A DNA stretch of 43,791 bases from a virus. The stretch lies in the IMG/VR virus record IMGVR_UViG_3300020185_000093, positions 1-43,791 of that record. One strand, given 5' to 3'. Below the pieces are notes generated by a model, which worked only from the letters and a program-made list of their open reading frames with translations, searched no databases and was not told where the DNA came from. Each line of letters opens with the position of its first letter. Positions within the stretch are counted from its first letter, which is position 1. A program made the position numbers and the translations under genes. Below, piece after piece: positions 18,577 through 35,859 of the stretch.

Positions 18577-19575
18577 TTATACAAAATTGATAGTAGAAAA
18601 TATAGCTTTATGATACTCATCAGTTAAATCTGTGTATTCACCATCAATTATATACCCTATTTTATCTACTACATCTGGTAGGTCTAAACATAAATTAGGA
18701 TTACCAGAAATTTGGGTTTCTAAACTATTTACTACTAAAGTTAATTTAGGTAATTTATTATCATATATTATTATCCTAGGTGTCCAATTATCTGTAATAA
18801 TTTTTTTAAAAGTATTAGAATTTTGAAAAAATATTTTAAAATGAGTATGAAAAAGTGAACCAGGGATAAAATTAAAAGGACCTTTTGGATTACCATCAAT
18901 ATCATATGATTCATAGCTTATCTTATCTTCTATGGCTTCAGGGAATATTTTATATTTAAAATTACGTATAAGGTGCCCCCAATAATCTTCAGCATCTTTA
19001 AATTTACCATCTTCTTTAAAAGAATGTTCATCACACATATAAAATTCCTTATCAATTAAAGGTAATATTTTTTTTAAATTAGATTTAGATAAAATATTAA
19101 GCATAAACCCAGGGAATCTATTTTTTTTATCTTGCAACCCATTTACTTTAGAGGTTAAGAAGGGTACAGGATTTAATAATGATTCTAAAATTAAATCGTT
19201 CATTTTAATATCATAATTAATAAAACTAAAATACTCATAATCAAGTGATATCCCTAAATTCCCCGCTAATAAGATTTGATTAAAAGCTGTCCAACCATAA
19301 TCCCCAACAATGTTTTGTAGTTTAATTGGGTTGTTTTTAAAATTTAAAGTTTTCCAAAATACCATTCCCCTATAAGGATAATGAATTATAGGGTTACTTT
19401 TATCATATATATAATACTCTATTTTGTTTTGGAGGGTTTGAGAGATTGGGATGTGTGATAATACCATCACATCAAAACCTTTAGCTTTTAAACATTTAAT
19501 ATTTTCTAATAGTATTTTTTTTTTAATTTTAGTATCACAATGACATAAAATTATAATTAAATTATTATTTGTCAT
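18577..19575 (-). CDS. Probable glycosyltransferase (GT-A type), last gene of the glycan cassette
   Basis: The 332-residue protein begins with a Rossmann-like strand (LIIILCHCDT) and an alternating strand/helix N-terminus (ECLK-type helix, GFDVMVLSHIP). An acidic site YFSFINYDIKMND near 115-127 sits where GT-A enzymes have their metal-binding DXD-like residues. NGLQDKKNRFPGFML and KDAEDYWGHLIRNF could form the acceptor side. This suggests a nucleotide-sugar-dependent transferase, but the family is uncertain because no canonical DXD is present. It overlaps the 3' end of the four-domain enzyme by 11 bases, implying translational coupling and a shared pathway. Confidence 0.5.
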   Translation of the reverse strand: MTNNNLIIILCHCDTKIKKKILLENIKCLKAKGFDVMVLSHIPISQTLQNKIEYYIYDKSNPIIHYPYRGMVFWKTLNFKNNPIKLQNIVGDYGWTAFNQILLAGNLGISLDYEYFSFINYDIKMNDLILESLLNPVPFLTSKVNGLQDKKNRFPGFMLNILSKSNLKKILPLIDKEFYMCDEHSFKEDGKFKDAEDYWGHLIRNFKYKIFPEAIEDKISYESYDIDGNPKGPFNFIPGSLFHTHFKIFFQNSNTFKKIITDNWTPRIIIYDNKLPKLTLVVNSLETQISGNPNLCLDLPDVVDKIGYIIDGEYTDLTDEYHKAIFSTINFV

Positions 19576-22500
19576 AACATGCTATATAGTTGTTTTTATT
19601 TTTATTTTCTTCATACTTTTCTACAGACTCATATTCTATATAATTAATATTATTATTACTACTTTTAAACCAATCTCCTTTATTATTTAATATCTGGTTA
19701 ATAATAGATTGTTCAGACTTATATAATGTAAGTAAATTTTTCTTAGTATCCACAATATTTTTATCTAGTTTAGTACTGGATTTTCCGAATACATATAATA
19801 TGTCTTCTAAAATAATTTTATCAATATAATCTTTAATAAAATTAAACACAGCTTTATGTTGTGGGTGTCCATATTCACCTATAGGGTTATGTGTTACTAT
19901 TTTTTCCCATTGTCTATTTAATAATATAGATTCAATATCGTATCTTTCAGGTGGATTATGTAAATCATCTTTATGATCAAATATTTCCCAAGACCCCACA
20001 TTTAATTTTGTCATTACTTGTTCAAATTCTTTACTTCTAATTTTATTTGATTTATTAGTAAGACAAATAACTTTATATTCCGGACCATGTTTTATTAATT
20101 CCGCGCCACCAAATATTAATTCATCATCAGGATGAGATACTACCATTAATTTTTTTATTTGGTGATCTTGATACATTAGATCTAAAGTTTTACTATTTTT
20201 AGGGACAACTGATGGGTCGGGACCATGTATAAAATAGGGTTGTTTGTTTGTTACATCAAACATAACATCAAATCCTTTATCTAATATATTTTGATCTACA
20301 ACAACTTTTTCTTTAGGAGAATAATAATTATTCCATGTAATGGGTAAATAATTAGTTTTATTTTCTTTCCAAAGTAATGCATTAGTTACTCTTTCTTCTG
20401 AGAATGCGTTATCGTCGGCAAATATTTGGAGATTTTGGGTATTTAGTTGTTTATTTAAGTCTAAACATCTTTGGAAAAATGATTCCGAATCTTTATTATA
20501 AAAGTAAAAACCAGTTGCTATAATAACATTATTTGGATTTCTTTTAATATCTAAAATATTAGATACTTCAGCTCCATAATGTCCCTCTAATTTAATATTT
20601 TTATATTTTCTCCAATGAACCATATCTTCATCAAAATATCTCATAAATAAGGGATAATCCTTTAAGTTTAAAAGGTATTTTAAAGAATCATCAATATTTT
20701 CAGTAGCAAAAGCATCACCATCTATCCAAGCAAAATTTTTATAGTCAGTTTTTAAAGAGTCTATACTAGTTAAATACTTAGCAAAATATATAGAATAGTC
20801 TTTGTCTATTAAATCAAATTCCTTGTTAGTATATCTTATAGGTTTAGGATCAAAGTTAATTCTTTTATTTATTACATTAGGTAAATTAATTTTTGAGTCA
20901 CAATTAAACCCATATACTATTAGTTTATATTTTGAATGTTTTAATAAACTTTTTGCTAAAACTTCTATCATAGATAGATATTTTTCATCTCCTCCTGTTA
21001 CCCAAACAAATTCATAATTTTCTTTAGGTTCTAATAAGTTTAAACATTCTAAATAAACCTGATCTACTGTAATTGATTTTTGACATATATGTTGTTTTGA
21101 TGTTCCTTCATTTTTAGGACACCAATCCCAATTACCTGGGTCAAATGTAAAATCTTTATTAACCCAACAATTATTACATACTGTATTATTTTCTACTTTA
21201 GTTAAATTATTTGTAAATTCATAACCAAATGGAATAAAATTATTAACCATTAAAGTTGGTTTATTTAAAGCCCAATTTGCCCAAGATAAACCAGAACCTA
21301 AACCTATAAATAAATCAGCGTGATACAGATAATTAAATGTTTTTTCCCAATTAAGTTTCTTTTTATCTATTATATTAGTTCCTGAAAACCCCTCATAGGA
21401 TAAATTAACTATTTTATATCCTTTTTTATGTAGTTTTTTTGCTAAATTTCTCCATTTATCATGAGGCCATTCTTTTAATCCAGAGGTTGCTCTAGGACCT
21501 ATACAAATGTATTTTTCTTTAATTGGTCTTTTTCCAATTTTAAAATCAACTCCATAATTAATTTCTTTATATGGTAAACCTAAAGCATCAGTTGCAGTTT
21601 GAATTAAAGGAATGGTATTTACTTGGTTTTTATTTTTTACACCTTTATCCCATTTTCCATTAGTTTTAAACCAACCTATTTTATAATGAGCATATCCTTG
21701 AGAAGTAATATCATTAGGTTTTACAAATAATAAATCTTTATATTCTGTTAAGTTTTCAAACCATTCATTATGAAATGTACTAACTACAACTTTACAATTA
21801 TGTTTTTTTTGAAATTCTAATACTTGAGGAGTCCATGCTAAAGTATCCCCTATAGATTTAGAATCTAAAGATATTCTTATTACTTTGTTCGTTACATCAA
21901 AAGTATGAATTATTTCCCCATTAACTTTAATAATCCAAGGAACATAATATTCATGATTACATTTAGTCCACATATTATTTTTAATGGTACTAGAATGGAT
22001 TACTTTATTAGTATCAGAATTTATAAATTCTACAAAATATTCTTTTTTATTTGAACCAAGTACCTCTAATTTAACTCCTTGATAAAAGCTAATTTCTATA
22101 GTGTTTTTTGGGGGATTTTTTACAAAAGATTGTATTTCTTTATCTGCAATTTTAGCTACGTTTTCCCAAGTAAATTTCTTTCTTAATTCTTTAGATTCTT
22201 TTAAAGCTATTTTTTTATGGTAATCATAATTATCATAAGCATCCCTCATTACCTCCTTAAGATGTTCAAAATCTGGTATATAAAACTCTCCTGATAGTTC
22301 TGATTGTGAATATGTACTATATTCTCCTCTAATAGCGGGTTGTGTGCCTAGTATATCTACAGGTAACCCTTTACCTTCAGCAAATTCTAGTTGTGCACTA
22401 CAATTTGAATAAATAGAAGGAGTACCACAAGCCATAGCTTCTATTAAGGGTAAATTCCATCCTTCTGATCTGGCACAAGATAAAAATACATGGCCTTTTT

Positions 22501-23311
22501 GAAGATATTTTATATATTCTTCCCTAGTAGGAAAATGTTTTATTTTAATTCGAGGATCATCTAGTTTATAATGTTTTAATCTTTCTTCTGTTGTTTCAAA
22601 CCCATCTTTTGCAAACATATTATCTATAGATATTACTAAATCTACAGGTTCATCTTTATCAAATTCTTCTAAAAAACTTTCAATTACCTCTTTTGTTGAT
22701 TTTCTATAATCCCACCTACCAAAATGAATAAACTTAAATCTTCCATCATCATATTCCGAAAGGGTTGCCTTACTATTAGGTTTAAATATTTTTCCATCTA
22801 CTGCTTCTGGGATTACTTTAATTTTTGATTCAGGGATTCCCTGGTTTATATTACATTCTTTTTGCCATTGGGAAGGTACCCATATTTGGTCATATTCTTT
22901 TATTTTATTATAGAAAGTAGTTGGGTATTCTGTTGTTTCCCATACAATATAAGCAATTTTAGGTCCCTCATAATTTTGATAAAAATAGTGGTGATTTACT
23001 TCTGCTAATACTATATTTAAATTATGATCAAGTTCATTAGGATAATCTTTATAAACATCATAATCATATAATTTTTTATCGGGTCCAAATAAAGTTTGTT
23101 GGGTTATAAGTTTTTTATCTAAATCAGTTATATATGGTTCTTTATTAAAAGGTTCATCTATTATACCATCAAAATATTTAGGAACTGTAAAATTTCTAAT
23201 TTTTAAAGGATAATAATTAGATAGAGTTCTAAAAAAGTCTCGGGAATGGTTATTAAAACCTGTTGTTCCTATATAACAACTAGAAATTAAAATTTTAGTA
23301 TTTTTTAACAT
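19565..23311 (-). CDS. Four-domain glycan enzyme: GT4 + BAHT-like heptosyltransferase + DXD glycosyltransferase + PIG-L deacetylase
   Basis: This 1248-residue protein joins four apparent enzymes. Residues 1-395 form a GT-B/GT4 glycosyltransferase with the EX7E pair Glu283/Glu291 in SEGWNLPLIEAMACGTP. Residues 404-760 resemble bacterial autotransporter heptosyltransferases (Aah/TibC): an N-terminal strand section with NNMWTKCNHEYYVPW, then SIGDTLAWTPQVLEF at 486-500, and four cysteines at 712, 715, 731 and 743 (C-x2-C-x15-C-x11-C) where TibC binds iron. Residues 764-1035 form a GT-A domain with DGD at 864-866 (AWIDGDAFAT). Residues 1053-1175 are a PIG-L/LmbE-type de-N-acetylase with SHPDDE (1059-1064) and GHPQH (1148-1152), the zinc and catalytic residues. 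All key residues are present, so all four could be active. The gene starts directly after the GT9-like gene. The substrate is unknown; fibre proteins or a surface glycan are candidates. Confidence 0.8.
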   Translation of the reverse strand: MLKNTKILISSCYIGTTGFNNHSRDFFRTLSNYYPLKIRNFTVPKYFDGIIDEPFNKEPYITDLDKKLITQQTLFGPDKKLYDYDVYKDYPNELDHNLNIVLAEVNHHYFYQNYEGPKIAYIVWETTEYPTTFYNKIKEYDQIWVPSQWQKECNINQGIPESKIKVIPEAVDGKIFKPNSKATLSEYDDGRFKFIHFGRWDYRKSTKEVIESFLEEFDKDEPVDLVISIDNMFAKDGFETTEERLKHYKLDDPRIKIKHFPTREEYIKYLQKGHVFLSCARSEGWNLPLIEAMACGTPSIYSNCSAQLEFAEGKGLPVDILGTQPAIRGEYSTYSQSELSGEFYIPDFEHLKEVMRDAYDNYDYHKKIALKESKELRKKFTWENVAKIADKEIQSFVKNPPKNTIEISFYQGVKLEVLGSNKKEYFVEFINSDTNKVIHSSTIKNNMWTKCNHEYYVPWIIKVNGEIIHTFDVTNKVIRISLDSKSIGDTLAWTPQVLEFQKKHNCKVVVSTFHNEWFENLTEYKDLLFVKPNDITSQGYAHYKIGWFKTNGKWDKGVKNKNQVNTIPLIQTATDALGLPYKEINYGVDFKIGKRPIKEKYICIGPRATSGLKEWPHDKWRNLAKKLHKKGYKIVNLSYEGFSGTNIIDKKKLNWEKTFNYLYHADLFIGLGSGLSWANWALNKPTLMVNNFIPFGYEFTNNLTKVENNTVCNNCWVNKDFTFDPGNWDWCPKNEGTSKQHICQKSITVDQVYLECLNLLEPKENYEFVWVTGGDEKYLSMIEVLAKSLLKHSKYKLIVYGFNCDSKINLPNVINKRINFDPKPIRYTNKEFDLIDKDYSIYFAKYLTSIDSLKTDYKNFAWIDGDAFATENIDDSLKYLLNLKDYPLFMRYFDEDMVHWRKYKNIKLEGHYGAEVSNILDIKRNPNNVIIATGFYFYNKDSESFFQRCLDLNKQLNTQNLQIFADDNAFSEERVTNALLWKENKTNYLPITWNNYYSPKEKVVVDQNILDKGFDVMFDVTNKQPYFIHGPDPSVVPKNSKTLDLMYQDHQIKKLMVVSHPDDELIFGGAELIKHGPEYKVICLTNKSNKIRSKEFEQVMTKLNVGSWEIFDHKDDLHNPPERYDIESILLNRQWEKIVTHNPIGEYGHPQHKAVFNFIKDYIDKIILEDILYVFGKSSTKLDKNIVDTKKNLLTLYKSEQSIINQILNNKGDWFKSSNNNINYIEYESVEKYEENKNKNNYIACYDK

Positions 23312-24190
23312 TTACTCTTTATTTAATGATGTAATAATTTTATTTATATCAAACACTTCATCTAAATTATTGTAGGGTATACTAGATATGTTTTCAATTA
23401 AAGAAAAAGGGGTGTATGCTATATTATGCAAAGGAATATCTTTAGTGTAAGGATTAGATATAATATTATCATGGAATTTATATCCAAATATTTCTGGTTT
23501 TGTGTTTATCCAACATACTGTAGATTTTTTATTTAATGCTCTAGCCATATGTTGACCAAAGCTGTCTATTAGTAGTCTTTTTTTAGATTTTTGAAGAAGA
23601 ATTGCTATACTTCTATAACCATCTATAGCTTGTAAAGTATCTGGGTATATTAGTTGGTCTTCTCTTTTAATATGGATTATAGTATAATCTTTCTTGTAAT
23701 GGTCAATAAGTTTTTTGACAATAGGGGTTGGAATATCACGAGTCCAAGAATATTGGCTACTAATATTAGGAGGACCCCCATGAGGTTGAATAACCATAAT
23801 AGGTTTATCAGTTGTATAATAGGGAGAAAAATAATCAATTTCAGGTTGGGTAAGATAAATTTGAGGTTGTTCATTATTATACTTAATTCCAAATAACTCA
23901 CACCAAGTTTTTAATAAAGATGTAGGTTTATCAATAATAAAATCAGATGTTTTATAGGGTTCAGATGCAAATATTTTACATTTTTGATCCTTTATATATT
24001 TTAAATATAAACCATTTATTTGATTAATATCATAAACTTCATGTATTTGAGGGTTGTTTAAAAAAACATCAGTAAATGGGGTAACAACTATTAGTTTCGC
24101 GTTTTTATAACGGTTTTTAATGGCTTTTACTATGGCAGTTGCCATTATTGACTTACCAAGTCCTCCTTCAATTTGAAAGATAATATTCAT
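23312..24190 (-). CDS. GT9-like (heptosyltransferase-type) glycosyltransferase
   Basis: This 292-residue protein has the two-lobed layout of GT9 enzymes. The N-terminus FQIEGGLGKSIMATAIVKAI is followed by a Rossmann lobe (AKLIVVTPFTDVFLNNP). The C-terminal lobe starts with IMVIQPHGGPPN and SWTRDIP and continues with IIHIKRED and LLIDSFGQHMARAL, the usual nucleotide-sugar side. ADP-heptose is the common donor in this family, but the donor cannot be read from sequence. It ends exactly before the four-domain enzyme, whose second domain is of a related fold. The start at 24190 is followed at once by the family N-terminal strand. Confidence 0.7.
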   Translation of the reverse strand: MNIIFQIEGGLGKSIMATAIVKAIKNRYKNAKLIVVTPFTDVFLNNPQIHEVYDINQINGLYLKYIKDQKCKIFASEPYKTSDFIIDKPTSLLKTWCELFGIKYNNEQPQIYLTQPEIDYFSPYYTTDKPIMVIQPHGGPPNISSQYSWTRDIPTPIVKKLIDHYKKDYTIIHIKREDQLIYPDTLQAIDGYRSIAILLQKSKKRLLIDSFGQHMARALNKKSTVCWINTKPEIFGYKFHDNIISNPYTKDIPLHNIAYTPFSLIENISSIPYNNLDEVFDINKIITSLNKE

Positions 24191-24265: not shown

Positions 24266-24583
24266 TTACTCCCAAGGATACCCATTAATAATTGTTGGGG
24301 GGTTTTGAAAACTCTCACCAATCTTATCACTTATTATGTTAGCAGCATTTTCTTCAATATTAGATACATCTACTTGTGATTTTACCCATTCTATTACTGT
24401 TTCTTCAGTTAAATCTTCATAAGGAATAAAATCAGGGTTATCTATAGAACCTGTGAGTGATACTTCACCTACATATCTAGCAGTAAATCCTTCACGTTCT
24501 GATTCTACTCTAAAATCTATATGGTATACTAAATTATCACTAATTTGTCTATGCATATCATTAACTATCCACTTATGTACCAT
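24266..24583 (-). CDS. Hypothetical protein inside the glycan cassette
   Basis: This 105-residue protein interrupts the enzyme cassette. It begins MVHKWIVNDMHRQ, has a strand-rich middle (LVYHIDFRVESE, GFTARYVGEVSL) and ends with a helical part and PPTIINGYPWE. Similar small proteins occur near tail genes of T4-like marine phages, but I know no function. It has an exact late-promoter-like motif 13 bases upstream, unlike the enzymes around it, so it may be a virion-phase gene rather than a pathway enzyme. Confidence 0.55.
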   Translation of the reverse strand: MVHKWIVNDMHRQISDNLVYHIDFRVESEREGFTARYVGEVSLTGSIDNPDFIPYEDLTEETVIEWVKSQVDVSNIEENAANIISDKIGESFQNPPTIINGYPWE

Positions 24584-24596
24584 TTTATTTTTATTT

Positions 24597-24608
24597 TATT
24601 ATAAATAT
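24597..24608 (-). promoter_or_regulatory. Late-promoter-like motif inside the glycan cassette
   Basis: The sense strand reads ATATTTATAATA then AAAT, 13 bases before the ATG at 24583 and 2 bases after the methyltransferase gene. It could drive the small gene plus the downstream GT9-like and four-domain enzyme genes late in infection. Confidence 0.5.
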
Positions 24609-24610: not shown

Positions 24611-25231
24611 TTAAATATTTTTATTTAATCCTTTAATCCATGTTTCATCACTATATACCATATTAGGATATAAAGAATCAGTATTTTTTTCTAAAAACTC
24701 ATTTACCGCTTTTACTACTCCAGGCCAAGTTTTACTATAATCATGACCCGATATAATTCCATTTGGTTTTATTTTAGGGAAACATAAATTTAAATCCTGT
24801 TTAACTGCTTTATACTCATGATTTGCATCTATATAAACCACATCAAAATAATTATCAGGAAAATTATTTACTATATTATAACTATAGTCTTTATGTAGAA
24901 TAATATTATCCCAATGTCTAGTATTTATTTTAAATTCATTAAATACATCCTCCCAATTTTCATTTAAATATTTATTAGCTTTTTCTTCACCCTTAAAAGG
25001 ATCAACACAATGGATTTCTTTAAATAAACCAGTTGCCGCAAATAAAGAAGTTGATTCACCCATATAAGATCCAATTTCTAATAAATTTAAAGTAGGAGTT
25101 AATGTTTGTTTTAATGTTGTTGATTGATAATAAGCATCAATTTCATTTAAAAAATCAAAAAAACCGAAAAAGTATCTATTTTTATGGTTTAAATTCCATT
25201 CTAGAGGAGGGTTAAATCTTAATGACTTCAT
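24611..25231 (-). CDS. SAM-dependent methyltransferase
   Basis: This 206-residue class I methyltransferase has the SAM-binding motif I LLEIGSYMGEST (50-61), an acidic end of strand 2 (IHCVDPFKGEE near 73-83), and VVYIDANHEYKAV (131-143) with GIISGHDYSKTWPGV (158-172). These His/Asp pairs are typical of metal-assisted O-methyltransferases of the Methyltransf_24 type, often found with glycosyltransferases, where they methylate sugar hydroxyls. The acceptor is unknown. Its sequence is related to the C-terminal half of the GT25 protein two genes upstream, so the two probably arose by duplication. It follows the dioxygenase gene with a one-base gap. Confidence 0.75.
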   Translation of the reverse strand: MKSLRFNPPLEWNLNHKNRYFFGFFDFLNEIDAYYQSTTLKQTLTPTLNLLEIGSYMGESTSLFAATGLFKEIHCVDPFKGEEKANKYLNENWEDVFNEFKINTRHWDNIILHKDYSYNIVNNFPDNYFDVVYIDANHEYKAVKQDLNLCFPKIKPNGIISGHDYSKTWPGVVKAVNEFLEKNTDSLYPNMVYSDETWIKGLNKNI

Positions 25232-25232: not shown

Positions 25233-25952
25233 TTATCCTACTAAATTTCTATCACACCAATTTTCGGAAGAAGATGCAACATTATTATTACTTGATTCTA
25301 TATATTCCCATGCTAGACTAAATCTTGTTTTATCTGAGATGTTATTATAACACCCATGGATTAGATTTATGTTAAAAAATACAGCATAGGGTGCATTTAG
25401 TTCTAAATCTAATACCCAATTGGGGTTTATTCTATTTTCATCAATCCAACTTATTCCTTCTATATGAGAAATAGCATTATGGGGTATTATCCCTATTTCA
25501 TGGGAACCAGGAATTACTCTTAAACAACCATTATTTTTATCTGTATCTTGTAAATAAATAGCACAACTGATTATAGTATTAGGATCACCATTAAAATAAA
25601 AATTATCTTGATGAAGATATGTAGACATACCAACTTTAGGTTTCATAGGAAAAAATTTAGATATATAAACATCTAAAGTTTCTTGGGTATTGATTAATTG
25701 TTTAGCAGTTTTAATTAATGTTTTATTTTTAGCTAAATTTAAAAACTCAGGTTCGAATTCACAAGCACCTTCAATTTTATTTAAATTTGTAGGACTATTT
25801 AATCTATAATTACCCTTATGTTCCTTTAAAGTTAAAGAATAATCATAATGTTTTTGGGATATTTTTAATATTTTATTTAATTTTTTTTGAGATATAAAAT
25901 CTTTTACAATTACATACCCTAATTCATTAAATTTATTTATATTAAAATTCAT
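25233..25952 (-). CDS. PhyH-type Fe(II)/2-oxoglutarate dioxygenase
   Basis: This 239-residue enzyme belongs to the phytanoyl-CoA dioxygenase-like group. The iron facial triad is visible as His114-x-Asp116 (TYLHQDNFYF) and His199 (LIHGCYNN), with Arg210 (DKTRFSLAWEY) to bind 2-oxoglutarate. SCAIYLQDTDKNNGCLRVIPGSHE (129-151) is the characteristic core strand pair. Such enzymes hydroxylate small molecules, lipids or sugar and nucleotide derivatives. The place between a GT25 protein and a methyltransferase suggests hydroxylation of a glycan or its acceptor, but the substrate cannot be read. It overlaps the upstream gene by 11 bases. Confidence 0.75.
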   Translation of the reverse strand: MNFNINKFNELGYVIVKDFISQKKLNKILKISQKHYDYSLTLKEHKGNYRLNSPTNLNKIEGACEFEPEFLNLAKNKTLIKTAKQLINTQETLDVYISKFFPMKPKVGMSTYLHQDNFYFNGDPNTIISCAIYLQDTDKNNGCLRVIPGSHEIGIIPHNAISHIEGISWIDENRINPNWVLDLELNAPYAVFFNINLIHGCYNNISDKTRFSLAWEYIESSNNNVASSSENWCDRNLVG

Positions 25953-27291
25953 AGTCTTCTTTTTTAATTAACCAACTACCATCTTCGAAGTTAATTGAAT
26001 TTTTAGGAGCATCTTTTAATCTATCTCCCCCAATATACCCTCCTAAAGCTAGTTTAGGTAAATATAATTTTACAAGTGAGTTAATATCCTTATTTTTTCT
26101 ATTATTAATATATACAAATAAAAGTTTAGAAGGAATATTACTTATATTTTCTGGGGGGGATTTGATTAATTTTATATTTTCATGGAAATAATTATTATTA
26201 TTAAATCCTATTTCTATATCATCCCAAGTCATATTATGGGTTATATTAAACTTATCTTCTCCTTTTAATGGGTCTATAGCATATATATTAGAAAATAAAC
26301 CACAAGCTCCAAAATAAAAAGTATTTTCTCCTAAATGGCTATTTATTTCTACCATTTTACCCCTTGTTTTTAAATTTAAAGAAAGGAATGAAATTAATTT
26401 TGTTATACCTAAAAAATTATAATTAATACTATCTTTACTTGTTAGTTTTTGAAGACCAAATTTAGGTTTTGAAAGTACAATTTCATGGAAATCATTTACA
26501 TTAGTAGGATGTTTTATGTATTTTGCTAAATTTTTGTTTAAAATATTACCATTTTCATCGAATGAAATTCCAACTTTTCCACCTCCTTTTCTATATTCAT
26601 TAAAATAAGTATCAGAATCACCTAAATAAAAAGATTCAACATCAGATCGTTGGAGAAAAATACTTTCTTTAAATGTAAAAGAATTATGAGTATTATAAAA
26701 ATGTTCTAAATAAGTATCAGCAGCATTTTTAATAGGTAAAACTTTATTAGTTAAAACTTTTAACATATCCCTAGTTACAAGATATGAATGTGCTCCATTA
26801 TAATTTGTATAAGGAGTGGGATAAGTTAAATATTTACCTACATTTATTCCCATAGTATTTCTTGATTTTTTTCCTAAGTGAATTAAATCATAATCAATAT
26901 TTTTAATTTCATCTAACATATCCTGGTATAGATCAGTAAAACTTCCATCTTCTTTTAAAATATTAAAAGGTTTTTGTAAAATAACATCATCTTCCAAAAT
27001 AAGAGCATTTTCAACTTTATCAGATAAAGCTTGATCCCAAGCCTTTTTATGAGATAAGGCACAAGCAAATACCCCCATACTTACCATCCCATGAGGATCA
27101 AAAAAAGAAGAATTTAATATTTTATCTTTTAATAATTGTTTTTGGTTAAGATCATTACTATCTATAGCTTCTATAAATGTAAAATCAATTGTTGGAAAAG
27201 ATTCAATTAATATTTTTTTTCTATCTTTTCTTCGTTTTAAATTTATAACATAAACTTTATCAAAACCAAATGTAGAATATTTATTAGACAT
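25942..27291 (-). CDS. GT25 glycosyltransferase fused to a decayed methyltransferase-like domain
   Basis: Residues 1-240 of this 449-residue protein are a GT25 (LPS/collagen-type) glycosyltransferase: KVYVINLKRRKDRKK (12-26), FACALSHKKAWDQAL (75-89) and the acidic motif ALILEDDV (96-103). Residues 290-449 align by eye with the separate methyltransferase at 24611-25231: MVEINSHLGENT for its LEIGSYMGEST, YAIDPLKGEDK for HCVDPFKGEEK. The later catalytic residues are lost, with YIDANHE becoming YINNRKN and SGHD becoming GGDR. The second half is therefore probably a non-catalytic or regulatory copy. GT25 includes collagen galactosyltransferases of animals and viruses, notable beside collagen-like fibres, although bacterial members mostly act on lipooligosaccharide. 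Confidence 0.75.
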   Translation of the reverse strand: MSNKYSTFGFDKVYVINLKRRKDRKKILIESFPTIDFTFIEAIDSNDLNQKQLLKDKILNSSFFDPHGMVSMGVFACALSHKKAWDQALSDKVENALILEDDVILQKPFNILKEDGSFTDLYQDMLDEIKNIDYDLIHLGKKSRNTMGINVGKYLTYPTPYTNYNGAHSYLVTRDMLKVLTNKVLPIKNAADTYLEHFYNTHNSFTFKESIFLQRSDVESFYLGDSDTYFNEYRKGGGKVGISFDENGNILNKNLAKYIKHPTNVNDFHEIVLSKPKFGLQKLTSKDSINYNFLGITKLISFLSLNLKTRGKMVEINSHLGENTFYFGACGLFSNIYAIDPLKGEDKFNITHNMTWDDIEIGFNNNNYFHENIKLIKSPPENISNIPSKLLFVYINNRKNKDINSLVKLYLPKLALGGYIGGDRLKDAPKNSINFEDGSWLIKKEDYEF

Positions 27292-28359: not shown

Positions 28360-31300
28360 CTACCTATTTTTAGACTCTAGTTTTTCTACTTTACTTGTTA
28401 GATCTTTAACTGCTTCAATTAATAAAGGGATTATTTTTTCATAATTAACTGCTTTATAACCATTATCTCTTGTAGTAACAGCTTCAGGAAGGATAGATTC
28501 TATTTCTTGAGCAATTACCCCTACATCTTTTCCTTTATTCCCATGAATATTTTGTACTTCTTCTGGGGTTAATTCTTTCCAACTAAATGTATTACCACTT
28601 ACACCAATTACTTTACATAAAGCATTTTTAATAGGTTTAATACAACATTTTAACCTTTTATCAGAAGTTGCAAATGCTACAACATCATTTGTTGCATCAA
28701 TTCTACCTGCAGTTGTATTAAGTGTTGATGTACCACCAACTTGTAAATGACATCCTATAACGGTATTATTCATATAAGTTGTACAACCACAAGCAGTAGA
28801 TAAACTACATCCTAAAGCAAAAGACATTGGTTTACTTACATTATTATTACATCCTCCTAAAATAGCACTCCAAGTACCAGCAGATGAAATACAATTATTT
28901 GCTCCAGCACCAATAAAAGCTTTACCACCACACACTCTATTTGTATTTCCTGCAACAATAGCTGATTCAAATGCATTTGTTGAATATATACCATTTGAAA
29001 GTCCAGCCCCTATAAATACCTGACAAGAGTTGCAAATTTCATTTACACAACCAGCTACAATTGCAGAACGATTAGTGCTATTACATATATCATTAAGCTC
29101 ACCAGCCCCTATAATATTCCCTCTTCCACCACCTATTGTAATTGCATTACAACAACCACTAACAATTGCACCAAAAGACATATTGCCTCCAACTTCATTT
29201 GATTGTCCACCACCAATAAAATTATTATTGCAAGCACCACCTAGTACGTTAATGCAATTAAAAACACCTCCTCCTATTGTATGATAATTACCATTTGAAG
29301 CAATATAATTCCGACACCCCCCAGCTATTGTAGAGAATGCTGCTGATGCTGTATTTTGAGCTCCTCCCAAAATAGAGTTATAACAATTAGATGGTATTGC
29401 AAAATGGGGACCTACTGATAGATTAGTACCATCAAAATTTAAATTAGCCTCTGCATTTAAACCACTAACAGTTCCATCAGATGTAACTACTCTGTTATCA
29501 CCTTGGTTTGATATTGTTGGAGATGTTCCAGAAGTTCCTGAAGAGCCTGATGTGCCACTTGAGCCTGAAGTTCCACTGTTTCCACTTGTTCCTGAAGAGC
29601 CTGAAGTACCACTGTTTCCACTTGTTCCTGATGAACCTGATGTACCACTGTTTCCACTTGTTCCTGATGAACCTGATGAACCGCTATTACCTGATGTTCC
29701 TGATGAACCTGATGAACCGCTATTACCTGATGTTCCTGATGAACCCGAAGTACCACTGTTTCCACTTGTTCCTGAAGAACCTGAAGTACCACTGTTTCCT
29801 GAAGTACCTGAAGAACCACTTGAACCTGAAGTTCCTGATGAGCCCGATGAACCTGATGAACCACTTGATCCCGATGTACCTGAAGAACCTGAAGTACCAC
29901 TATTACCTGATGTTCCTGAAGAGCCTGAAGTTCCTGATGTTCCTGATGAACCACTTGAACCTGAAGTTCCTGATGAGCCTGATGAGCCTGAAGAACCGCT
30001 TGAACCTGAAGTACCTGAAGAACCTGAAGTTCCACTATTTCCACTTGTTCCCGATGAACCTGATGTACCACTATTTCCACTTGTTCCTGAAGAACCACTT
30101 GAGCCTGATGTTCCTGAAGAGCCACTTGAGCCTGAAGAGCCTGAAGAGCCTGAAGTTCCTGATGAACCTGAAGTTCCTGATGAACCTGATGAACCTGATG
30201 TGCCTGAAGAGCCTGAAGAACCACTTGTACCTGATGAACCTGAAGTTCCTGATGAGCCTGATGAGCCTGAAGTTCCACTTGAACCAGATGTACCTGATGT
30301 ACCATCAGTTCCTCTATCACCTACTAAGGCAAAAGAACAAAGAACCTTTTCTCCATTACTAAATGGAGATGCCGCGGATGATGCTTGTTCATTTATATTT
30401 ATTGTCCACCATGCTCCTTGATCTGTTAAATCAGATATTGAAAATAATATAAAATTTTCTGGAGAAAACTTGTCTGATATTCTTATGTGACCTTTTACAG
30501 CTGATGTAGAAGCATCTATAGATTGTAAAAATTCTTCTATATCATCACCATCTTCAGTTGTTTGGCTAATAGAGCAGGTTAGAGCTGAATTTTGAGTTGT
30601 ACTGTTTAACTTTACATCACCAGTACCAGGGTCTGATACACCTACATTAGTATCAAATGTATAATTAAAGGTAGCACCACCAAAATTACCATCTTGTCCT
30701 GAAGTTCCTGATGAACCTGATGTGCCTGAAGAGCCTGAAGAACCACTTGTACCTGATGAACCTGAAGTTCCTGATGAGCCTGATGAGCCTGAAGAACCTG
30801 ATGAGCCTGAAGAACCTGAAGAACCTGAAGTTCCACTTGAACCAGATGTACCTGATGTTCCAGAAGAACCTGATGAACCATTTGTTCCTGAAGTACCAGA
30901 ACTACCTGAACTACCTGAACTACCAGATGTACCTGAAGAACCTGAAGTACCACTATTACCTGATGTTCCTGAAGAGCCTGAAGTTCCTGATGTTCCTGAT
31001 GAACCACTTGAACCTGAAGTTCCTGATGAGCCTGATGAACCTGATGATCCTGATGACCCTGAAGTACCTGATGATCCTGAAGTACCACTATTTCCACTTG
31101 TTCCTGAAGAACCACTTGAACCTGAAGTTCCTGAAGTTCCTGAAGAACCTGATGAGCCTGAAGAGCCATTTGTACCTGAAGTTCCTGAAGAGCCACTTGA
31201 ACCTGATGTTCCTGATGTTCCTGATGAACCACTTGAACCTGAAGTTCCTGAAGAGCCTGAAGAGCCTGAAGAACCGCTTGAACCTGAAGTACCTGAAGAA

Positions 31301-31698
31301 CCTGAAGTTCCAGGATTACCATCTATACCAGAAGTTCCTGAAGAGCCACTTGAACCTGATGTTCCTGAAGAGCCTGAAGAACCGCTTGAACCTGAAGTAC
31401 CCGAAGAACCTGAAGTGCCCGAAGAGCCTGAAGAGCCGCTTGAACCTGAAGTGCCCGAAGAACCTGATGTACCATTTGTACCTGAGGTGCCTGAAGAACC
31501 TGATGAGCCTGAAGAACCTGAAGTACCACTTGATCCTGAAGTACCACTAGAAGCTGCATTTTCTCTAGTACCTATAAGACCTGAACTGTCAATAACTAAA
31601 GTAGTTTCTTCAGATGGTTGGGATGAAAGATCTGTTAGCTTAAGTTGAGTTAACTCTGCATTACTACCACTATATACTATTTTCTTCCAATTGGCCAT
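28360..31698 (-). CDS. Collagen-like tail fibre with YadA-like head and S74 self-cleaving chaperone
   Basis: This 1112-residue fibre has five parts. Residues 1-50 are an N-terminal anchor (MANWKKIVYSGSNAELTQLK) shared with two other fibre genes here. Two collagen-like Gly-X-Y blocks follow, about 50-335 and 463-724, almost wholly Gly-Thr-Ser and Gly-Ser-Ser triplets. They flank a globular insert (about 340-460). A linker (near 730-765) leads to a YadA/Hia-like head of GGxxN repeats at about 770-1000 that is strikingly Cys-rich (GCCNA, GCVNEICNSCQ). The last 101 residues (from SDKRLK, 1012) are the S74 intramolecular chaperone of endosialidase-type fibres, which trimerises the protein and cleaves itself off before that Ser. 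It probably forms a trimeric receptor-binding fibre. The repeats imply frequent length variation by recombination. Confidence 0.85.
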   Translation of the reverse strand: MANWKKIVYSGSNAELTQLKLTDLSSQPSEETTLVIDSSGLIGTRENAASSGTSGSSGTSGSSGSSGSSGTSGTNGTSGSSGTSGSSGSSGSSGTSGSSGTSGSSGSSGSSGTSGSSGSSGTSGIDGNPGTSGSSGTSGSSGSSGSSGSSGTSGSSGSSGTSGTSGSSGSSGTSGTNGSSGSSGSSGTSGTSGSSGSSGTSGNSGTSGSSGTSGSSGSSGSSGSSGTSGSSGSSGTSGTSGSSGTSGNSGTSGSSGTSGSSGSSGSSGTSGTNGSSGSSGTSGTSGSSGTSGSSGSSGSSGSSGSSGSSGTSGSSGTSGSSGSSGTSGSSGTSGQDGNFGGATFNYTFDTNVGVSDPGTGDVKLNSTTQNSALTCSISQTTEDGDDIEEFLQSIDASTSAVKGHIRISDKFSPENFILFSISDLTDQGAWWTININEQASSAASPFSNGEKVLCSFALVGDRGTDGTSGTSGSSGTSGSSGSSGTSGSSGTSGSSGSSGTSGSSGSSGTSGSSGTSGSSGSSGSSGSSGTSGSSGSSGTSGNSGTSGSSGTSGNSGTSGSSGTSGSSGSSGSSGSSGTSGSSGSSGTSGTSGSSGTSGNSGTSGSSGTSGSSGSSGSSGSSGTSGSSGSSGTSGNSGTSGSSGTSGNSGTSGSSGTSGNSGSSGSSGTSGNSGSSGSSGTSGNSGTSGSSGTSGNSGTSGSSGTSGNSGTSGSSGTSGSSGTSGTSPTISNQGDNRVVTSDGTVSGLNAEANLNFDGTNLSVGPHFAIPSNCYNSILGGAQNTASAAFSTIAGGCRNYIASNGNYHTIGGGVFNCINVLGGACNNNFIGGGQSNEVGGNMSFGAIVSGCCNAITIGGGRGNIIGAGELNDICNSTNRSAIVAGCVNEICNSCQVFIGAGLSNGIYSTNAFESAIVAGNTNRVCGGKAFIGAGANNCISSAGTWSAILGGCNNNVSKPMSFALGCSLSTACGCTTYMNNTVIGCHLQVGGTSTLNTTAGRIDATNDVVAFATSDKRLKCCIKPIKNALCKVIGVSGNTFSWKELTPEEVQNIHGNKGKDVGVIAQEIESILPEAVTTRDNGYKAVNYEKIIPLLIEAVKDLTSKVEKLESKNR
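29527..30312 (-). repeat. DNA of second collagen-like block, fibre 1
   Basis: This is a low-complexity tract of near-repeated 9- and 18-base units encoding Gly-Thr-Ser and Gly-Ser-Ser triplets. Synonymous differences between units limit exact repeats. It is a likely site for slippage or recombination with the other collagen blocks. Confidence 0.8.
30694..31555 (-). repeat. DNA of first collagen-like block, fibre 1
   Basis: Same kind of Gly-X-Y coding repeat as the second block, with occasional non-Ser/Thr triplets (Gly-Ile-Asp-Gly-Asn-Pro, Gly-Thr-Asn). Sub-blocks are duplicated within it and between the two blocks. Confidence 0.8.
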
Positions 31699-31699: not shown

Positions 31700-34099
31700 T
31701 TATTCTTTTATTACTATTGAAAAATTTTCAAGGGTAAAGTTATCATTAGATGGACTTTTATATTGTACCCATATTTCATCATTTTGAACTAATGAAACAA
31801 GGCCAGATAAAGCTACGGGTCCTACCTCCCCACTATCTAATTCTATACTTCCTTCAACTCCAGTAACTTGTGTACCATTTTTTGTAACAGTAAAATCAAA
31901 TGATTCATTATTACCTCCTACACCTCCGACTGTTAAATTAACATTAAACAATATTTCTAAAGGCTTAGAACCAATATAACGTAGACTACTACCCCCAATT
32001 ATACTAAACCTTTGATCTGTTCCTGAGTTAATAGTAGCAATACTTAAATCAGTATATGTTGTTGTAGCACCTTGAGCATCAGTACCAGTTTGATAAGCAA
32101 ATATAAAAGCTCTACTATCTTGTAGACCTTGATTAGATGCTACATCGTATTTTAACATTGAGGTATCATTATATGTACTTCCTGCTAAAATAACTCCTGT
32201 TGTTAAACCTACAGTTACAAATGCATTTGCTACTACTGTACCAAAACCGGTAGTAGATGATGTACTAATATTTAATGCATCTTGTGTTTGTTGGGGATGA
32301 ATTATACATCCATTTATATTTATAGCACCAAACCCTGCATTTAAATTACCATTTGCCTGAAGTTCAATCATAGGGCATGTAGCAAAACCACTAGGGGTTG
32401 GTAAAGAAGATTCTGAGAACCATCTAATAAATTCACATGAACTAATTTCTAATTTAGAAACATCTTGAAACCTGCAACCAAAAGTAGGTGATGATATATA
32501 GAAAAATGTAGTGTTATTAAAATCAACAAGGTCAAAACCTTTAACATCCATAACATTTCCTGCAATATTTCTATATTGAACGTTTATTAAATTTAAAAAT
32601 TTACTTCTACCAAAATTATAAGAACCAGCAGAAGTTGCTATATCAGTAGCTTCAATTAAGGTACTTGATGAATTTGTACTAGATAACCAAACACTTTGCA
32701 TTGTAAAATTTTGACTAGTTACCGTTATAAATGTTCCTGTACCTGTATATATTATTTTATCTCTTTCTTTATCAATTCCTATAATAGAAACCCCAGCTCC
32801 TCCAACGGTAAGTTCAGAACCATTAGTCATAGTAACTTCTCCATTAACTCTATACGTTGTATTAGCAGCTAAAGTTGAAGGAAAATCACTTTCTTGAGTT
32901 ATATCTACAATATTTATAGAATTAGCTGTTTGTGTTGTTTGTCCTGTTAATGTTAATAAACTCCCATCAAAAGTAAGGTTAGCTTCTGCATTAGCACTTG
33001 TGCCATCAATATCAGTTAAAATTCTATTATTACCTGTGTTAGTTATGTTAATAACACCTGATGTACCTGAACTACCACTTGTTCCATTAGTTCCTGAAGT
33101 TCCACTTGTACCACTACTTCCACTTGTGCCTGAAGTTCCTGATGAACCTGAAGTTCCTGGGTTACCATCTTGTCCTGATGTTCCCGAAGAACCTGAAGTT
33201 CCTGATGAACCTGAAGAACCTGAAGTTCCACTTGAACCCGATGTGCCATCTATACCTGAAGTTCCTGATGAACCACTTGTACCATTTCCTGAAGTACCTG
33301 ATGAACCTGAAGTTCCTGATGAGCCTGATGTACCTGGATTACCATCTATACCTGAAGTTCCTGATGAACCACTTGTACCATTTCCTGAAGTACCTGATGA
33401 ACCTGAAGTTCCTGGGTTACCATCTATACCTGAAGTTCCTGAAGAACCCGATGTACCTGATGAACCTGAGGTACCATTTATACCTGATGTTCCCGAAGAA
33501 CCTGAAGTTCCTGGGTTACCATCTACACCAGAAGTTCCTGATGAGCCCGATGTACCATTTATACCTGATGTTCCCGAAGAACCTGAAGTTCCTGGATTAC
33601 CATCTATACCTGAAGTTCCTGATGAACCACTTGTACCATTTCCTGAAGTACCTGAAGAGCCTGATGAACCTGAAGTTCCTGATGAGCCTGAGGTTCCTGA
33701 TGAACCTGAAGTACCTGATGAGCCTGATGTGCCGTTTATACCTGAAGTTCCTGAAGAACCTGAAGTTCCTGGGTTACCATCTATACCTGAAGTTCCTGAT
33801 GAACCACTTGTACCATTTCCTGAAGTACCTGATGAACCTGAACTACCATCTGTACCACTTGTACCATCTGTACCTGAAGTGCCTGAAGTGCCTGAAGTGC
33901 CTGATGAGCCTGATGTACCTGAAGAGCCTGATGTGCCTGAAGTTCCACTAGAAGCTGCATTATTTCTAGTACCAATAACTCCTGTAGGGCTAATAACTAA
34001 GGTATTAGTTTGGGAGCCTTGGGTTGCAAGATCTGTTAATGTTAATTTACTTAATTCAGCATTACTGCCACTAAGTACTACTTTTTTCCAATTTGGCAT
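31700..34099 (-). CDS. Collagen-like tail fibre with C-terminal beta-helix-like domain
   Basis: This 799-residue paralogue shares the N-terminal anchor (MPNWKKVVLSGSNAELSKL). It then has one collagen-like block (about 52-347) built from GTSGSSG units with recurring IDGNPGTSG segments, which place a Pro in the Y position. A linker (NNRILTDIDGTSANAEANL) follows. The C-terminal 430 residues look like a right-handed parallel beta-helix (TYRVNGEVTMTNGSELTVGG, SIIGIDKERDKIIYTG, then many short strand/turn repeats) and end in a small beta domain (LEILFNVNLTVGG, EIWVQYKSPSND). Such domains often bind or cleave surface polysaccharide, but no catalytic residues can be assigned. It begins 61 bases after a late-promoter-like motif and ends directly before fibre 1. 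Confidence 0.8.
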   Translation of the reverse strand: MPNWKKVVLSGSNAELSKLTLTDLATQGSQTNTLVISPTGVIGTRNNAASSGTSGTSGSSGTSGSSGTSGTSGTSGTDGTSGTDGSSGSSGTSGNGTSGSSGTSGIDGNPGTSGSSGTSGINGTSGSSGTSGSSGTSGSSGTSGSSGSSGTSGNGTSGSSGTSGIDGNPGTSGSSGTSGINGTSGSSGTSGVDGNPGTSGSSGTSGINGTSGSSGTSGSSGTSGIDGNPGTSGSSGTSGNGTSGSSGTSGIDGNPGTSGSSGTSGSSGTSGNGTSGSSGTSGIDGTSGSSGTSGSSGSSGTSGSSGTSGQDGNPGTSGSSGTSGTSGSSGTSGTSGTNGTSGSSGTSGVINITNTGNNRILTDIDGTSANAEANLTFDGSLLTLTGQTTQTANSINIVDITQESDFPSTLAANTTYRVNGEVTMTNGSELTVGGAGVSIIGIDKERDKIIYTGTGTFITVTSQNFTMQSVWLSSTNSSSTLIEATDIATSAGSYNFGRSKFLNLINVQYRNIAGNVMDVKGFDLVDFNNTTFFYISSPTFGCRFQDVSKLEISSCEFIRWFSESSLPTPSGFATCPMIELQANGNLNAGFGAININGCIIHPQQTQDALNISTSSTTGFGTVVANAFVTVGLTTGVILAGSTYNDTSMLKYDVASNQGLQDSRAFIFAYQTGTDAQGATTTYTDLSIATINSGTDQRFSIIGGSSLRYIGSKPLEILFNVNLTVGGVGGNNESFDFTVTKNGTQVTGVEGSIELDSGEVGPVALSGLVSLVQNDEIWVQYKSPSNDNFTLENFSIVIKE
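33058..33955 (-). repeat. DNA of collagen-like block, fibre 2
   Basis: Gly-X-Y coding repeat organised in longer near-identical sub-blocks that include the Ile-Asp-Gly-Asn-Pro-Gly-Thr-Ser segment several times, showing recent internal duplication. Confidence 0.8.
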
Positions 34100-34160
34100 A
34101 TCTATTTTATTAGGTTGGCTACTGTTTTACCAGTCCACTTCCCTTACGGGCCTTAATATT

Positions 34161-34172
34161 TATTATAAATAT
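34161..34172 (-). promoter_or_regulatory. Late-promoter-like motif before fibre 2
   Basis: The sense strand reads ATATTTATAATA then AATATT, 61 bases before the ATG at 34099. The leader is longer than for other copies. It could drive fibre 2, fibre 1 and the first cassette genes as one message. Confidence 0.5.
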
Positions 34173-34605: not shown

Positions 34606-34641
34606 AAACTTTTTTTTTATATAATAACTATTTTTTATTTT

Positions 34642-35859
34642 TTATGAATAAATATAAATATCACCTGAAGCAGATGTAAATATATTTCCTTCAGCCTGGT
34701 ATCTACTTGGTACTGAAGCAGGTAAAGCACCTCCTGTACCAATTACTGCAGTTGCCATAAAGGCATCTGGGATAAATGTTGAACCACTAGCGTGGAAAGA
34801 ACTTGTTAATCCCCATCTTTCGGTTGATAAACCGTCAAATGCAAAAACATCTCCAAAATCTTGTGTAGTTTGTTGTACTACAATACCACCATCTCCAACA
34901 GCATTTGAACCAGAAGCTAATAAAATAAATCTATCAGCAACTAATAAATTTTCTGAGTTTTGGAAAGATGCTGTTCCTTGTACTGTTAAATCATGACTTA
35001 TTACTACATCTCCTGTTACAGATAATAAACCTCCTAATGTAGTACCCCCAGTACTATCAAAAGTAAGATTTTGTTCTGCATTAGCACTTTCACCATCAAT
35101 ATCAGTTAAAACTCTATCATTACCTGTGTTAGTTATGTTAATAACACCTGATGTACCTGATGAGCCTGAAGTACCTGAAGAGCCTGAAGTTCCTGAAGAG
35201 CCTGAAGAGCCTGAAGTTCCTGAAGAGCCTGAAGAGCCTGAAGTTCCTGATGAACCTGATGTTCCAGGATTACCATCATTACCACTAGTACCACTTGAAC
35301 CTGAACTACCATCTGTACCACTTGTACCATCTGTACCTGAAGTACCTGATGTGCCTGAAGATCCTGAAGAACCACTTGTACCACTTGTTCCAGAAGAACC
35401 TGATGTACCTGGGTTACCATCTACACCACTTGTTCCACTTGAACCAGAAGAACCGTCTGTACCGCTTGTTCCAGAAGAACCTGATGTACCTGGGTTACCA
35501 TCTATACCACTTGTTCCAGATGAACCACTTGTTCCATCTGTACCACTTGTTCCACTAGTACCACTTGTTCCTGAAGAACCTGAAGTTCCAGGATTACCAT
35601 CGTTACCACTAGTTCCTGAAGAACCTGATGTACCATCATTACCACTAGTTCCTGAAGAGCCTGATGTACCATTTGTACCTGATGTACCAGATGTACCAGA
35701 GGATCCTGAAGATCCTGCACTTTCTCTAGTACCTACAACTCCAGCAGGGCTAATTACTAATACTGTTTCTTCTGATGCTTGTGTTGCTAAGTTTGTTAAT
35801 GATACTTTTGCTAATTCAGCATCCGAACCACTAACTATTACTTTTTTCCAATTTGCCAT
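34642..35859 (-). CDS. Short collagen-like tail fibre (third paralogue)
   Basis: This 405-residue fibre has the shared N-terminal anchor (MANWKKVIVSGSDAELAKVS), one collagen-like block (about 48-237) and the shared linker (NDRVLTDIDGESANAEQNL). Its C-terminal domain of about 140 residues has LLSVTGDVVISHDLTVQGTASF and ADRFILLASGSNAVGDGGIVVQ, which resembles tip domains of other phage fibres, and ends with ASGDIYIYS. It is the first and shortest of three tandem paralogues, probably an accessory fibre or an attachment adaptor. No enzyme motif is visible. Confidence 0.8.
   Translation of the reverse strand: MANWKKVIVSGSDAELAKVSLTNLATQASEETVLVISPAGVVGTRESAGSSGSSGTSGTSGTNGTSGSSGTSGNDGTSGSSGTSGNDGNPGTSGSSGTSGTSGTSGTDGTSGSSGTSGIDGNPGTSGSSGTSGTDGSSGSSGTSGVDGNPGTSGSSGTSGTSGSSGSSGTSGTSGTDGTSGTDGSSGSSGTSGNDGNPGTSGSSGTSGSSGSSGTSGSSGSSGTSGSSGTSGSSGTSGVINITNTGNDRVLTDIDGESANAEQNLTFDSTGGTTLGGLLSVTGDVVISHDLTVQGTASFQNSENLLVADRFILLASGSNAVGDGGIVVQQTTQDFGDVFAFDGLSTERWGLTSSFHASGSTFIPDAFMATAVIGTGGALPASVPSRYQAEGNIFTSASGDIYIYS
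35149..35715 (-). repeat. DNA of collagen-like block, fibre 3
   Basis: Gly-X-Y coding repeat like those of fibres 1 and 2, with Asp-Gly-Asn-Pro-Gly-Thr-Ser segments repeated. It shares long stretches of similar sequence with the fibre 2 block. Confidence 0.8.

What the first reader, a model, noticed from the sequence alone, without database searches (positions are those of the whole stretch)
18577..35859. Possible self-glycosylation system for collagen-like phage fibres
Three fibres with hundreds of Ser/Thr residues in Gly-X-Y repeats lie directly upstream, on the same strand, of at least six glycosyltransferase domains plus a dioxygenase, a methyltransferase and a deacetylase. One domain resembles Aah/TibC heptosyltransferases, which glycosylate repetitive beta-helical autotransporters on Ser. 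Another is GT25, a family that includes collagen galactosyltransferases. Sugar on Thr is known to stabilise some collagens poor in Pro, as these are. I infer that the cassette decorates the fibres. The alternative is modification of the host surface to block superinfection.
Basis: partly seen in the sequence, partly recalled or inferred. Interest (0 to 1): 0.9.

Follow-up and report, generated by a model that had tools for sequence, protein, structure and literature searches.

The report
Phage sugar-coating enzymes beside collagen-like fibres
A marine virus of bacteria carries a block of sugar-attaching enzymes, one related to the bacterial enzyme family that puts sugars on surface adhesins, right behind its serine-rich collagen-like fibre genes, and this pairing recurs in unrelated viruses, so these viruses may sugar-coat their own fibres.

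Summary
On the minus strand three fibre genes carry 346 Gly-X-Y triplets (604 Ser/Thr, no Lys, 11 Pro). They are followed by seven likely glycosyltransferase (GT) domains, two methyltransferase domains, a PhyH dioxygenase and a PIG-L deacetylase. The four-domain enzyme contains a TibC/Aah-like protein O-heptosyltransferase (BAHT) domain (E 1e-56, but 192 bits against a 200-bit cut-off) with TibC's catalytic Asp and four iron-finger Cys.

The fibre-decoration idea survived several tests. Of 50 records sampled only by GTSGSSG repeats, 16 carry a BAHT. In nine such records of 60 kb or more, 9 of 11 BAHT genes lie within 10 kb of a Gly-X-Y gene, against 4 of 21 generic GT2 genes. The cultured Microcystis phage Mel-JY01 has the pair. 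A late-promoter-like motif heads both parts of the cassette.

It is not a fixed cassette. The four-domain enzyme and the GT25 module each occur without Gly-X-Y fibres nearby. The GT25/collagen and Thr-stabilisation arguments are weak (no Lys; position Y is Ser, never Thr). Best reading: late, cytoplasmic Ser-O-glycosylation of repeat fibres, BAHT starting and other GTs extending. Chemistry is untested. Main rival: host-surface modification.

The parts
34642..35859 (-). Fibre F1, 405 aa, 64 Gly-X-Y triplets
   Evidence: PF01391 3e-29; composition
31700..34099 (-). Fibre F2, 799 aa, 97 Gly-X-Y triplets
   Evidence: PF01391 8e-39
28360..31698 (-). Fibre F3, 1112 aa, 185 Gly-X-Y triplets, C-terminal Peptidase_S74 chaperone
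   Evidence: PF01391 7e-77, PF13884 3e-11
27293..28327 (-). GT-B-fold glycosyltransferase, 344 aa
   Evidence: AlphaFold pLDDT 91 from 14 sequences; best PDB matches BshA, HepE, SdgB, TarM
25942..27291 (-). GT25 domain fused to a methyltransferase-like domain, 449 aa
   Evidence: PF01755 2e-24; COLGALT1 E 9e-12 in PDB; the MT24 protein matches its C-terminal part
25233..25952 (-). PhyH-type dioxygenase, 239 aa
   Evidence: PF05721 2e-22
24611..25231 (-). Methyltransferase, 206 aa
   Evidence: PF13578 2e-19
24594..24606 (-). Late-promoter-like motif ATTTATAATAAAA heading the second half of the cassette
   Evidence: 12 matches vs 3.1 expected in the window
34158..34170 (-). Late-promoter-like motif, one mismatch, upstream of F2
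24266..24583 (-). DUF7936 protein, 105 aa, role unknown
   Evidence: PF25590 7e-20
23312..24190 (-). Probable GT9-like glycosyltransferase, 292 aa
   Evidence: weak TIGR02201 hit E 0.003; conserved in 19 relatives
19565..23311 (-). Four-domain enzyme, 1248 aa: GT4 (about 1-395), TibC-like BAHT (403-754), GT-A type with DGD motif (about 775-1050), PIG-L deacetylase (1055-1161)
   Evidence: PF00534 2e-10, TIGR04414 1e-56, PF02585 7e-10, PDB TibC 2e-28; catalytic Asp and four Cys; GT-A assignment by sequence inspection
18577..19575 (-). GT-A-fold protein, 332 aa
   Evidence: AlphaFold pLDDT 91; Foldseek best E 1.7e-5 to GT-A enzymes

Best explanation
The cassette is a late-expressed, phage-borne protein O-glycosylation unit for Ser-rich repeat fibres. 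In the host cytoplasm the TibC-like domain of the four-domain enzyme puts a sugar (heptose by analogy) on Ser of newly made Gly-X-Ser fibre chains, before or during trimer assembly. The fused GT4 and GT-A domains, together with the GT25, GT-B and GT9-like enzymes, would extend it. PIG-L, PhyH and the methyltransferases would trim or cap the glycan. The result would be virions with sugar-coated fibres. Shown here: gene content, homology, conserved catalytic and metal residues, co-location, late-type promoter motifs, absence of membrane segments, recurrence across phages. Inferred: the reaction, the sugar, the acceptor residue and the benefit (stiffening a Pro-poor repeat, protease resistance, hiding the fibre).
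For: 1. The BAHT domain spans TibC (TIGR04414 1.2e-56; PDB 4RB4/4RAP E about 1e-28). The Asp whose D110A mutant is inactive in TibC and the four Cys are invariant in 13 phage BAHTs (PMC4358343). 2. Of 50 records sampled by GTSGSSG repeats alone, 16 hold a BAHT over the curated cut-off, against 0 of 37 random records and 4 of 50,697 named phages. 3. In the nine BAHT-bearing records of 60 kb or more, 9 of 11 BAHT genes lie within 10 kb of a Gly-X-Y gene against 4 of 21 GT2 genes, p 0.0016. 4. Reverse test: 17 of 29 BAHT loci with 5 kb or more on both sides have a Gly-X-Y gene; random loci 0 of 37. 5. On the BAHT tree the Gly-X-Y-neighbour label changes at least 9 times on well supported branches. 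6. Long records with the enzyme but no fibre beside it have hyper-Ser/Thr repeats elsewhere (G010, G018), and G005 has a non-collagen STTTTF repeat; 11 BAHT-lacking records of the same group have no fibre at 60% Ser/Thr. 7. Late-promoter-like motifs head F2 and the second half of the cassette, as at sheath and tube. 8. No cassette protein has a likely membrane segment. 9. L213 has HldE-like kinase and adenylyltransferase genes beside its BAHT.
Against: No direct evidence of a glycan exists. 34 of 50 GTSGSSG records lack a BAHT (many are fragments), so such fibres do not require it. BAHT-linked fibres are not richer in Ser/Thr (0.81 vs 0.90). In L048, L156, L160 and L199 the enzyme stands between neck and sheath without a fibre. 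The window's BAHT domain scores just below the curated cut-off. Random viral records are also poor in GT2, so the 16/50 versus 0/37 contrast partly reflects GT-rich large phages; the proximity test is the stronger one. GTs next to tail fibres in marine myophages have been read as host O-chain modification (PMC7029224). HldE-like genes are only weakly enriched with BAHT (9/47 vs 1/33, p 0.04).
Confidence: 0.58

Rival explanations
1. Host-surface modification: the enzymes change the host's LPS or capsule late in infection, to block superinfection or rebinding of progeny. They sit beside fibre genes because both belong to a variable host-recognition region.
For: GTs beside fibres are common in marine T4-like phages and were read this way (PMC7029224). 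The GT25 module and the four-domain enzyme occur without repeat fibres nearby. Sugar-nucleotide dehydratase-like and polysaccharide-type genes accompany them in relatives.
Against: BAHT family members with known activity glycosylate proteins (PMC4358343). BAHT genes hug Gly-X-Y genes far more than GT2 genes in the same records. No membrane or flippase component of a Gtr type in the cassette. Late-type promoter motifs.
Confidence: 0.25
2. Mixed system: the BAHT-bearing enzyme glycosylates the fibres, while the GT25 module serves another purpose (another virion protein or the host surface).
For: The two modules come and go independently at the same site.
Against: Both stand in one packed stretch with the fibres here, and the GT25 module also neighbours a Ser/Thr repeat protein in L020 and GTSGSSG fibres in G022.
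Confidence: 0.12
3. DNA modification or mere hitch-hiking: the enzymes modify phage DNA or have no role in fibres; closeness reflects recombination hot spots.
For: Phage GTs can glycosylate DNA (general knowledge); the methyltransferase matches a PHROG named DNA methyltransferase.
Against: The BAHT, GT25 and PIG-L domains do not resemble DNA GTs; conserved catalytic residues indicate selection for activity; closeness is specific to BAHT.
Confidence: 0.05

Closest known systems
Bacterial autotransporter heptosyltransferases (BAHT: TibC, Aah; TIGR04414; PDB 4RAP/4RB4)
   Same: Whole-domain homology; catalytic Asp and four iron-finger Cys kept; soluble; repetitive Ser-rich substrate proposed next door (PMC4358343)
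   Different: Phage-borne, fused to GT4, GT-A and PIG-L domains, beside Gly-X-Y fibres instead of a beta-helical autotransporter; window scores 192 bits against a 200 cut-off; no activity shown
Mimivirus collagen modification (virus-encoded hydroxylase/glycosyltransferase)
   Same: A virus carrying enzymes that could glycosylate its own collagen-like fibres (noted in the review PMC8968730, citing Luther 2011)
   Different: Mimivirus modifies hydroxylysine (own knowledge); the fibres here have no Lys in the triplets, and the enzymes differ apart from the GT25 resemblance
BclA and other glycosylated bacterial collagen-like proteins
   Same: Gly-X-Y repeats with O-glycans in a bacterium (PMC8968730)
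   Different: Bacterial collagens favour Pro at X and Thr at Y (PMC8968730); here position Y is Ser and Pro is nearly absent; enzymes differ
Pelagimyophage host recognition cluster with glycosyltransferases
   Same: T4-like marine myophages with tail fibres and GTs in one variable region, and collagen repeats among their structural proteins (PMC7029224)
   Different: Read there as host O-chain modification; the passages read do not mention a BAHT or a link to Gly-X-Y genes
EPclA/EPclB prophage collagen-like tail fibres of E. coli
   Same: Phage fibres with Gly-X-Y domains (PMC3368898)
   Different: Rich in Pro and charged residues, stable (42 C) and not glycosylated as recombinant protein

Membership tests
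BAHT (Aah/TibC) heptosyltransferase | NCBIfam TIGR04414 score over the curated cut-off of 200 | tested here: not met
   Window 192.3 bits, E 1.2e-56. A close relative, L111/G011, reaches 200.3; all 16 positive GTSGSSG-sampled records exceed it. Hence called BAHT-like, not filed as an equivalog.
BAHT (Aah/TibC) heptosyltransferase | Catalytic Asp (TibC D110) | tested here: met
   D90 of the aligned domain (GDTLAW) invariant in 13 sequences and aligned with TibC
BAHT (Aah/TibC) heptosyltransferase | Four iron-binding Cys (339, 342, 358, 370 in TibC) | tested here: met
   C313, C316, C332, C344 invariant in 13 sequences (PMC4358343)
BAHT (Aah/TibC) heptosyltransferase | Transfers heptose from ADP-heptose to protein Ser; dodecamer | not testable with these tools
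   Needs biochemistry; relative L213 carries HldE-like genes beside its BAHT
BAHT (Aah/TibC) heptosyltransferase | Neighbouring repetitive autotransporter substrate | tested here: not met
   No autotransporter found in the window; Gly-X-Y fibres take that place
Collagen-like protein | Long uninterrupted Gly-X-Y repeats matching PF01391 | tested here: met
   Three ORFs, 346 triplets
Collagen-like protein | Stable triple helix | not testable with these tools
   Only 11 Pro in 346 triplets, which is unfavourable without modification (inference)
GT25 collagen galactosyltransferase (COLGALT) | GT25 domain | tested here: met
   PF01755 87 bits against cut-off 24; PDB COLGALT1 E 9e-12
GT25 collagen galactosyltransferase (COLGALT) | Acts on hydroxylysine of the Gly-X-Y repeat | tested here: not met
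   No Lys in any triplet
Gtr-type O-antigen modification system | Membrane flippase, lipid-carrier transferase and integral membrane GT | tested here: not met
   No likely membrane segment in eight cassette proteins; highest 19-residue hydropathy 1.43

The most novel reading that the evidence does not exclude
Large aquatic tailed phages have repeatedly taken up TibC-type protein heptosyltransferases to coat their own Ser-rich repeat fibres, collagen-like or not, with sugar: a phage-encoded virion glycosylation system with its own initiating enzyme, elongating GTs and, in some, donor-sugar synthesis genes.
Probability: 0.5. Interest if true: 0.82.

Novelty: new variant of a known kind. Interest (0 to 1): 0.72.

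Why it matters
If true, it gives a function to a GT family found beside fibre genes in uncultured aquatic phages. It moves such GTs from 'host surface modification' to 'virion modification'. It also offers an answer to how a Gly-Ser-Thr collagen almost without proline could be stable. A cultured phage, Mel-JY01, makes it testable at once.

Tried and rejected
Collagen-only cassette: rejected, because modules separate from Gly-X-Y fibres in relatives. GT25 as a collagen-galactosyltransferase equivalent: rejected on substrate (no Lys). PhyH as a collagen prolyl or lysyl hydroxylase: unlikely (11 Pro, 0 Lys). Ser/Thr richness as a signature of BAHT-linked fibres: not found; slightly lower with BAHT. 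Random viral records as the only control: weak, because they are poor in GT2 as well; replaced by the within-record proximity test. ADP-heptose supply genes as a general companion: only weak enrichment. GT25-methyltransferase fusion in named phages: no match in 50,697 records. Fibre N-terminus in named phages: no match. T4 late box TATAAATA: not clearly enriched; the variant ATTTATAAYAAAA is. Solved structures for the 292-aa protein by profile: none. Literature on phage BAHTs or on Mel-JY01: none found in the open library.
Full report
What is there. The window is a whole uncultured viral record with T4-like capsid, PhoH, sheath and tube genes. Nearly all genes run on the minus strand. Between the neck genes and the tail sheath lie three collagen-like fibre genes and then eight genes of a sugar-enzyme cassette. 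The fibres hold 346 Gly-X-Y triplets: X is Ser (144) or Thr (158) in most, Y is Ser in 302 and never Thr, with 11 Pro and no Lys. The cassette genes are packed with gaps of -11 to 75 bp. GT families are GT25 (PF01755), GT4 (PF00534) and TibC-like BAHT (TIGR04414). A GT-A-type domain with a DGD motif, a GT-B-fold protein, a GT-A-fold protein and a weak GT9-like protein make seven likely GT domains. PhyH, two methyltransferase domains and PIG-L complete it.

The insertion site. In most relatives of this phage group neck and sheath are about 400-750 bp apart with nothing between. The cultured relative, Flavobacterium phage immuto (sheath 54%), has fibres and structural genes there and no annotated glycosyltransferase. 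In other relatives the site holds the four-domain enzyme alone or with sugar-nucleotide genes (L048, L156, L160, L199), BAHT with one GT4 (L285, L288), the GT25 module with non-collagen fibres (L018, L022), or everything (window, L015). So the 'cassette' is at least two modules. Relatives add UDP-GlcNAc 4,6-dehydratase-like, APS kinase, sulfotransferase and HldE-like genes.

The TibC-like domain. Residues 403-754 of the 1248-aa enzyme match TIGR04414 with E 1.2e-56, 192 bits against a cut-off of 200, and TibC structures with E near 1e-28. In 13 phage domains the Asp equivalent to TibC D110 and four Cys equivalent to the iron finger are invariant. In TibC the D110A mutant is inactive and each Cys is needed; Ser but not Thr was modified (PMC4358343). 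That paper does not mention phages.

Does it go with the fibres? I sampled IMG/VR by a DNA pattern for GTSGSSGTSGTSG only. Of 50 records, 16 have a TIGR04414 match over the cut-off, in records from 18 to 436 kb. Random-15-mer records gave 0 of 37, p 4.6e-5, and only 4 of 50,697 named phages have a match. This control is imperfect, since random records also lack GT2. The within-record test is better: in the nine BAHT-bearing records of 60 kb or more, 9 of 11 BAHT genes but only 4 of 21 GT2 genes lie within 10 kb of a Gly-X-Y gene, p 0.0016. The reverse test also holds: 17 of 29 BAHT loci with good flanks have a Gly-X-Y gene in the stretch held, random loci 0 of 37. On a tree of 98 BAHT domains the label needs 14 changes, at least 9 on supported branches, so the pairing is not one inherited event. 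Some loci on that tree were chosen for Gly-X-Y, so it shows spread, not frequency. Among 128 dereplicated neighbours of Gly-X-Y genes the commonest Pfam families are glycosyltransferases.

Exceptions. Twelve of 31 BAHT-bearing records in the first set of 50 had no PF01391 match. Most are fragments. Among the long ones, G010 and G018 were fibre-free at the neck-sheath site yet carry GTSGSSG fibres tens of kilobases away, and G005 carries a non-collagen Ser/Thr repeat (STTTTFNTS, 75% Ser/Thr) beside a GT25 module. G020 (54 kb) has no such fibre. Eleven BAHT-lacking records of the group had no stretch of 60% Ser/Thr, but two short GT25-bearing, BAHT-lacking fragments (G022, G026) did. In records of 45 kb or more, collagen matches were 6 of 8 with BAHT and 3 of 13 without (p 0.03, not corrected for kinship). 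This suggests the partner is a hyper-Ser/Thr repeat fibre rather than the collagen fold.

Timing and place. ATTTATAAYAAAA occurs 12 times with up to one mismatch against 3.1 expected, and in no shuffle as often. It stands just upstream of tape measure, tube, sheath and head-side genes, upstream of F2, and before DUF7936, which heads the second half of the cassette. By position it looks like the late promoter of this phage; that is inference. No cassette protein has a likely membrane segment. Late cytoplasmic action suits modification of newly made virion proteins.

A cultured example. Microcystis phage Mel-JY01 has a Gly-X-Y fibre of 176 triplets (84% Ser/Thr; not annotated as such, and cut by the record start), a structural gene, a GT4-FkbM-BAHT gene and a second short Gly-X-Y stretch in a row.

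What it is not. The GT25 argument fails on substrate, since there is no Lys for hydroxylysine. The Thr-stabilisation argument is weak, since Thr is never at Y. Ser/Thr content is not higher in BAHT-linked fibres, so Ser richness alone is no proof of glycosylation.

Relation to known work. GTs beside tail fibres in marine T4-like phages that also have collagen repeats were reported and read as host O-chain modification (PMC7029224). Viral glycosylation of own collagen is known from mimivirus, and bacterial collagen-like BclA is glycosylated (PMC8968730). From my own knowledge, glycosylated capsids and tail tubes have been reported for mycobacteriophages; I could not read that paper here. New, as far as I could search, is the TibC-type enzyme in phages and its pairing with Ser-rich repeat fibres.

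Verdict. Observation confirmed. Interpretation partly supported: fibre glycosylation by the BAHT-like enzyme is the best explanation (0.58), with the GT25 module's role open and host-surface modification the main rival.

Noticed in passing
window 14235-14247, 15872-15884, 18254-18266, 24594-24606, 39031-39043, 39471-39483, 40032-40044 (minus strand): Recurrent motif ATTTATAAYAAAA a short way upstream of late gene starts; probably this phage group's late promoter, differing from T4 TATAAATA.
   Followed up: partly
L018 5439-6263, 9448-9942; L156 7126-8568; L207 9011-10002: Relatives carry APS kinase, a nucleotidyltransferase-like and a small membrane-protein-like ORF, and in L018 a sulfotransferase, at the same site: possible sulfation of a glycan.
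   Followed up: partly
L213 375-4411: GT4, BAHT, HldE-like adenylyltransferase and kinase, HAD and cupin genes between neck and sheath: possible phage-borne ADP-heptose supply.
   Followed up: partly
L020 3-1226 (G005), L697 3-854 (G026): Non-collagen Ser/Thr repeat protein (STTTTFNTS..., 75% Ser/Thr) just before a GT25 module.
   Followed up: partly
L424 2-3049 and 9154-9983 (Microcystis phage Mel-JY01, PP395634): Gly-X-Y fibre frame not annotated as such in the public record; the record start cuts it, and the second Gly-X-Y stretch seems split between frames.
   Followed up: partly
neighbours of Gly-X-Y ORFs in L305-L409: Three RCC1-repeat proteins and three concanavalin-type lectins occur within four genes of Gly-X-Y fibres.
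   Followed up: no
window 24266-24583 and L018 5059-5352, L130 8380-8736: DUF7936 or a similar small protein recurs beside fibre genes with or without the GT cassette; possibly a fibre chaperone or adaptor.
   Followed up: no
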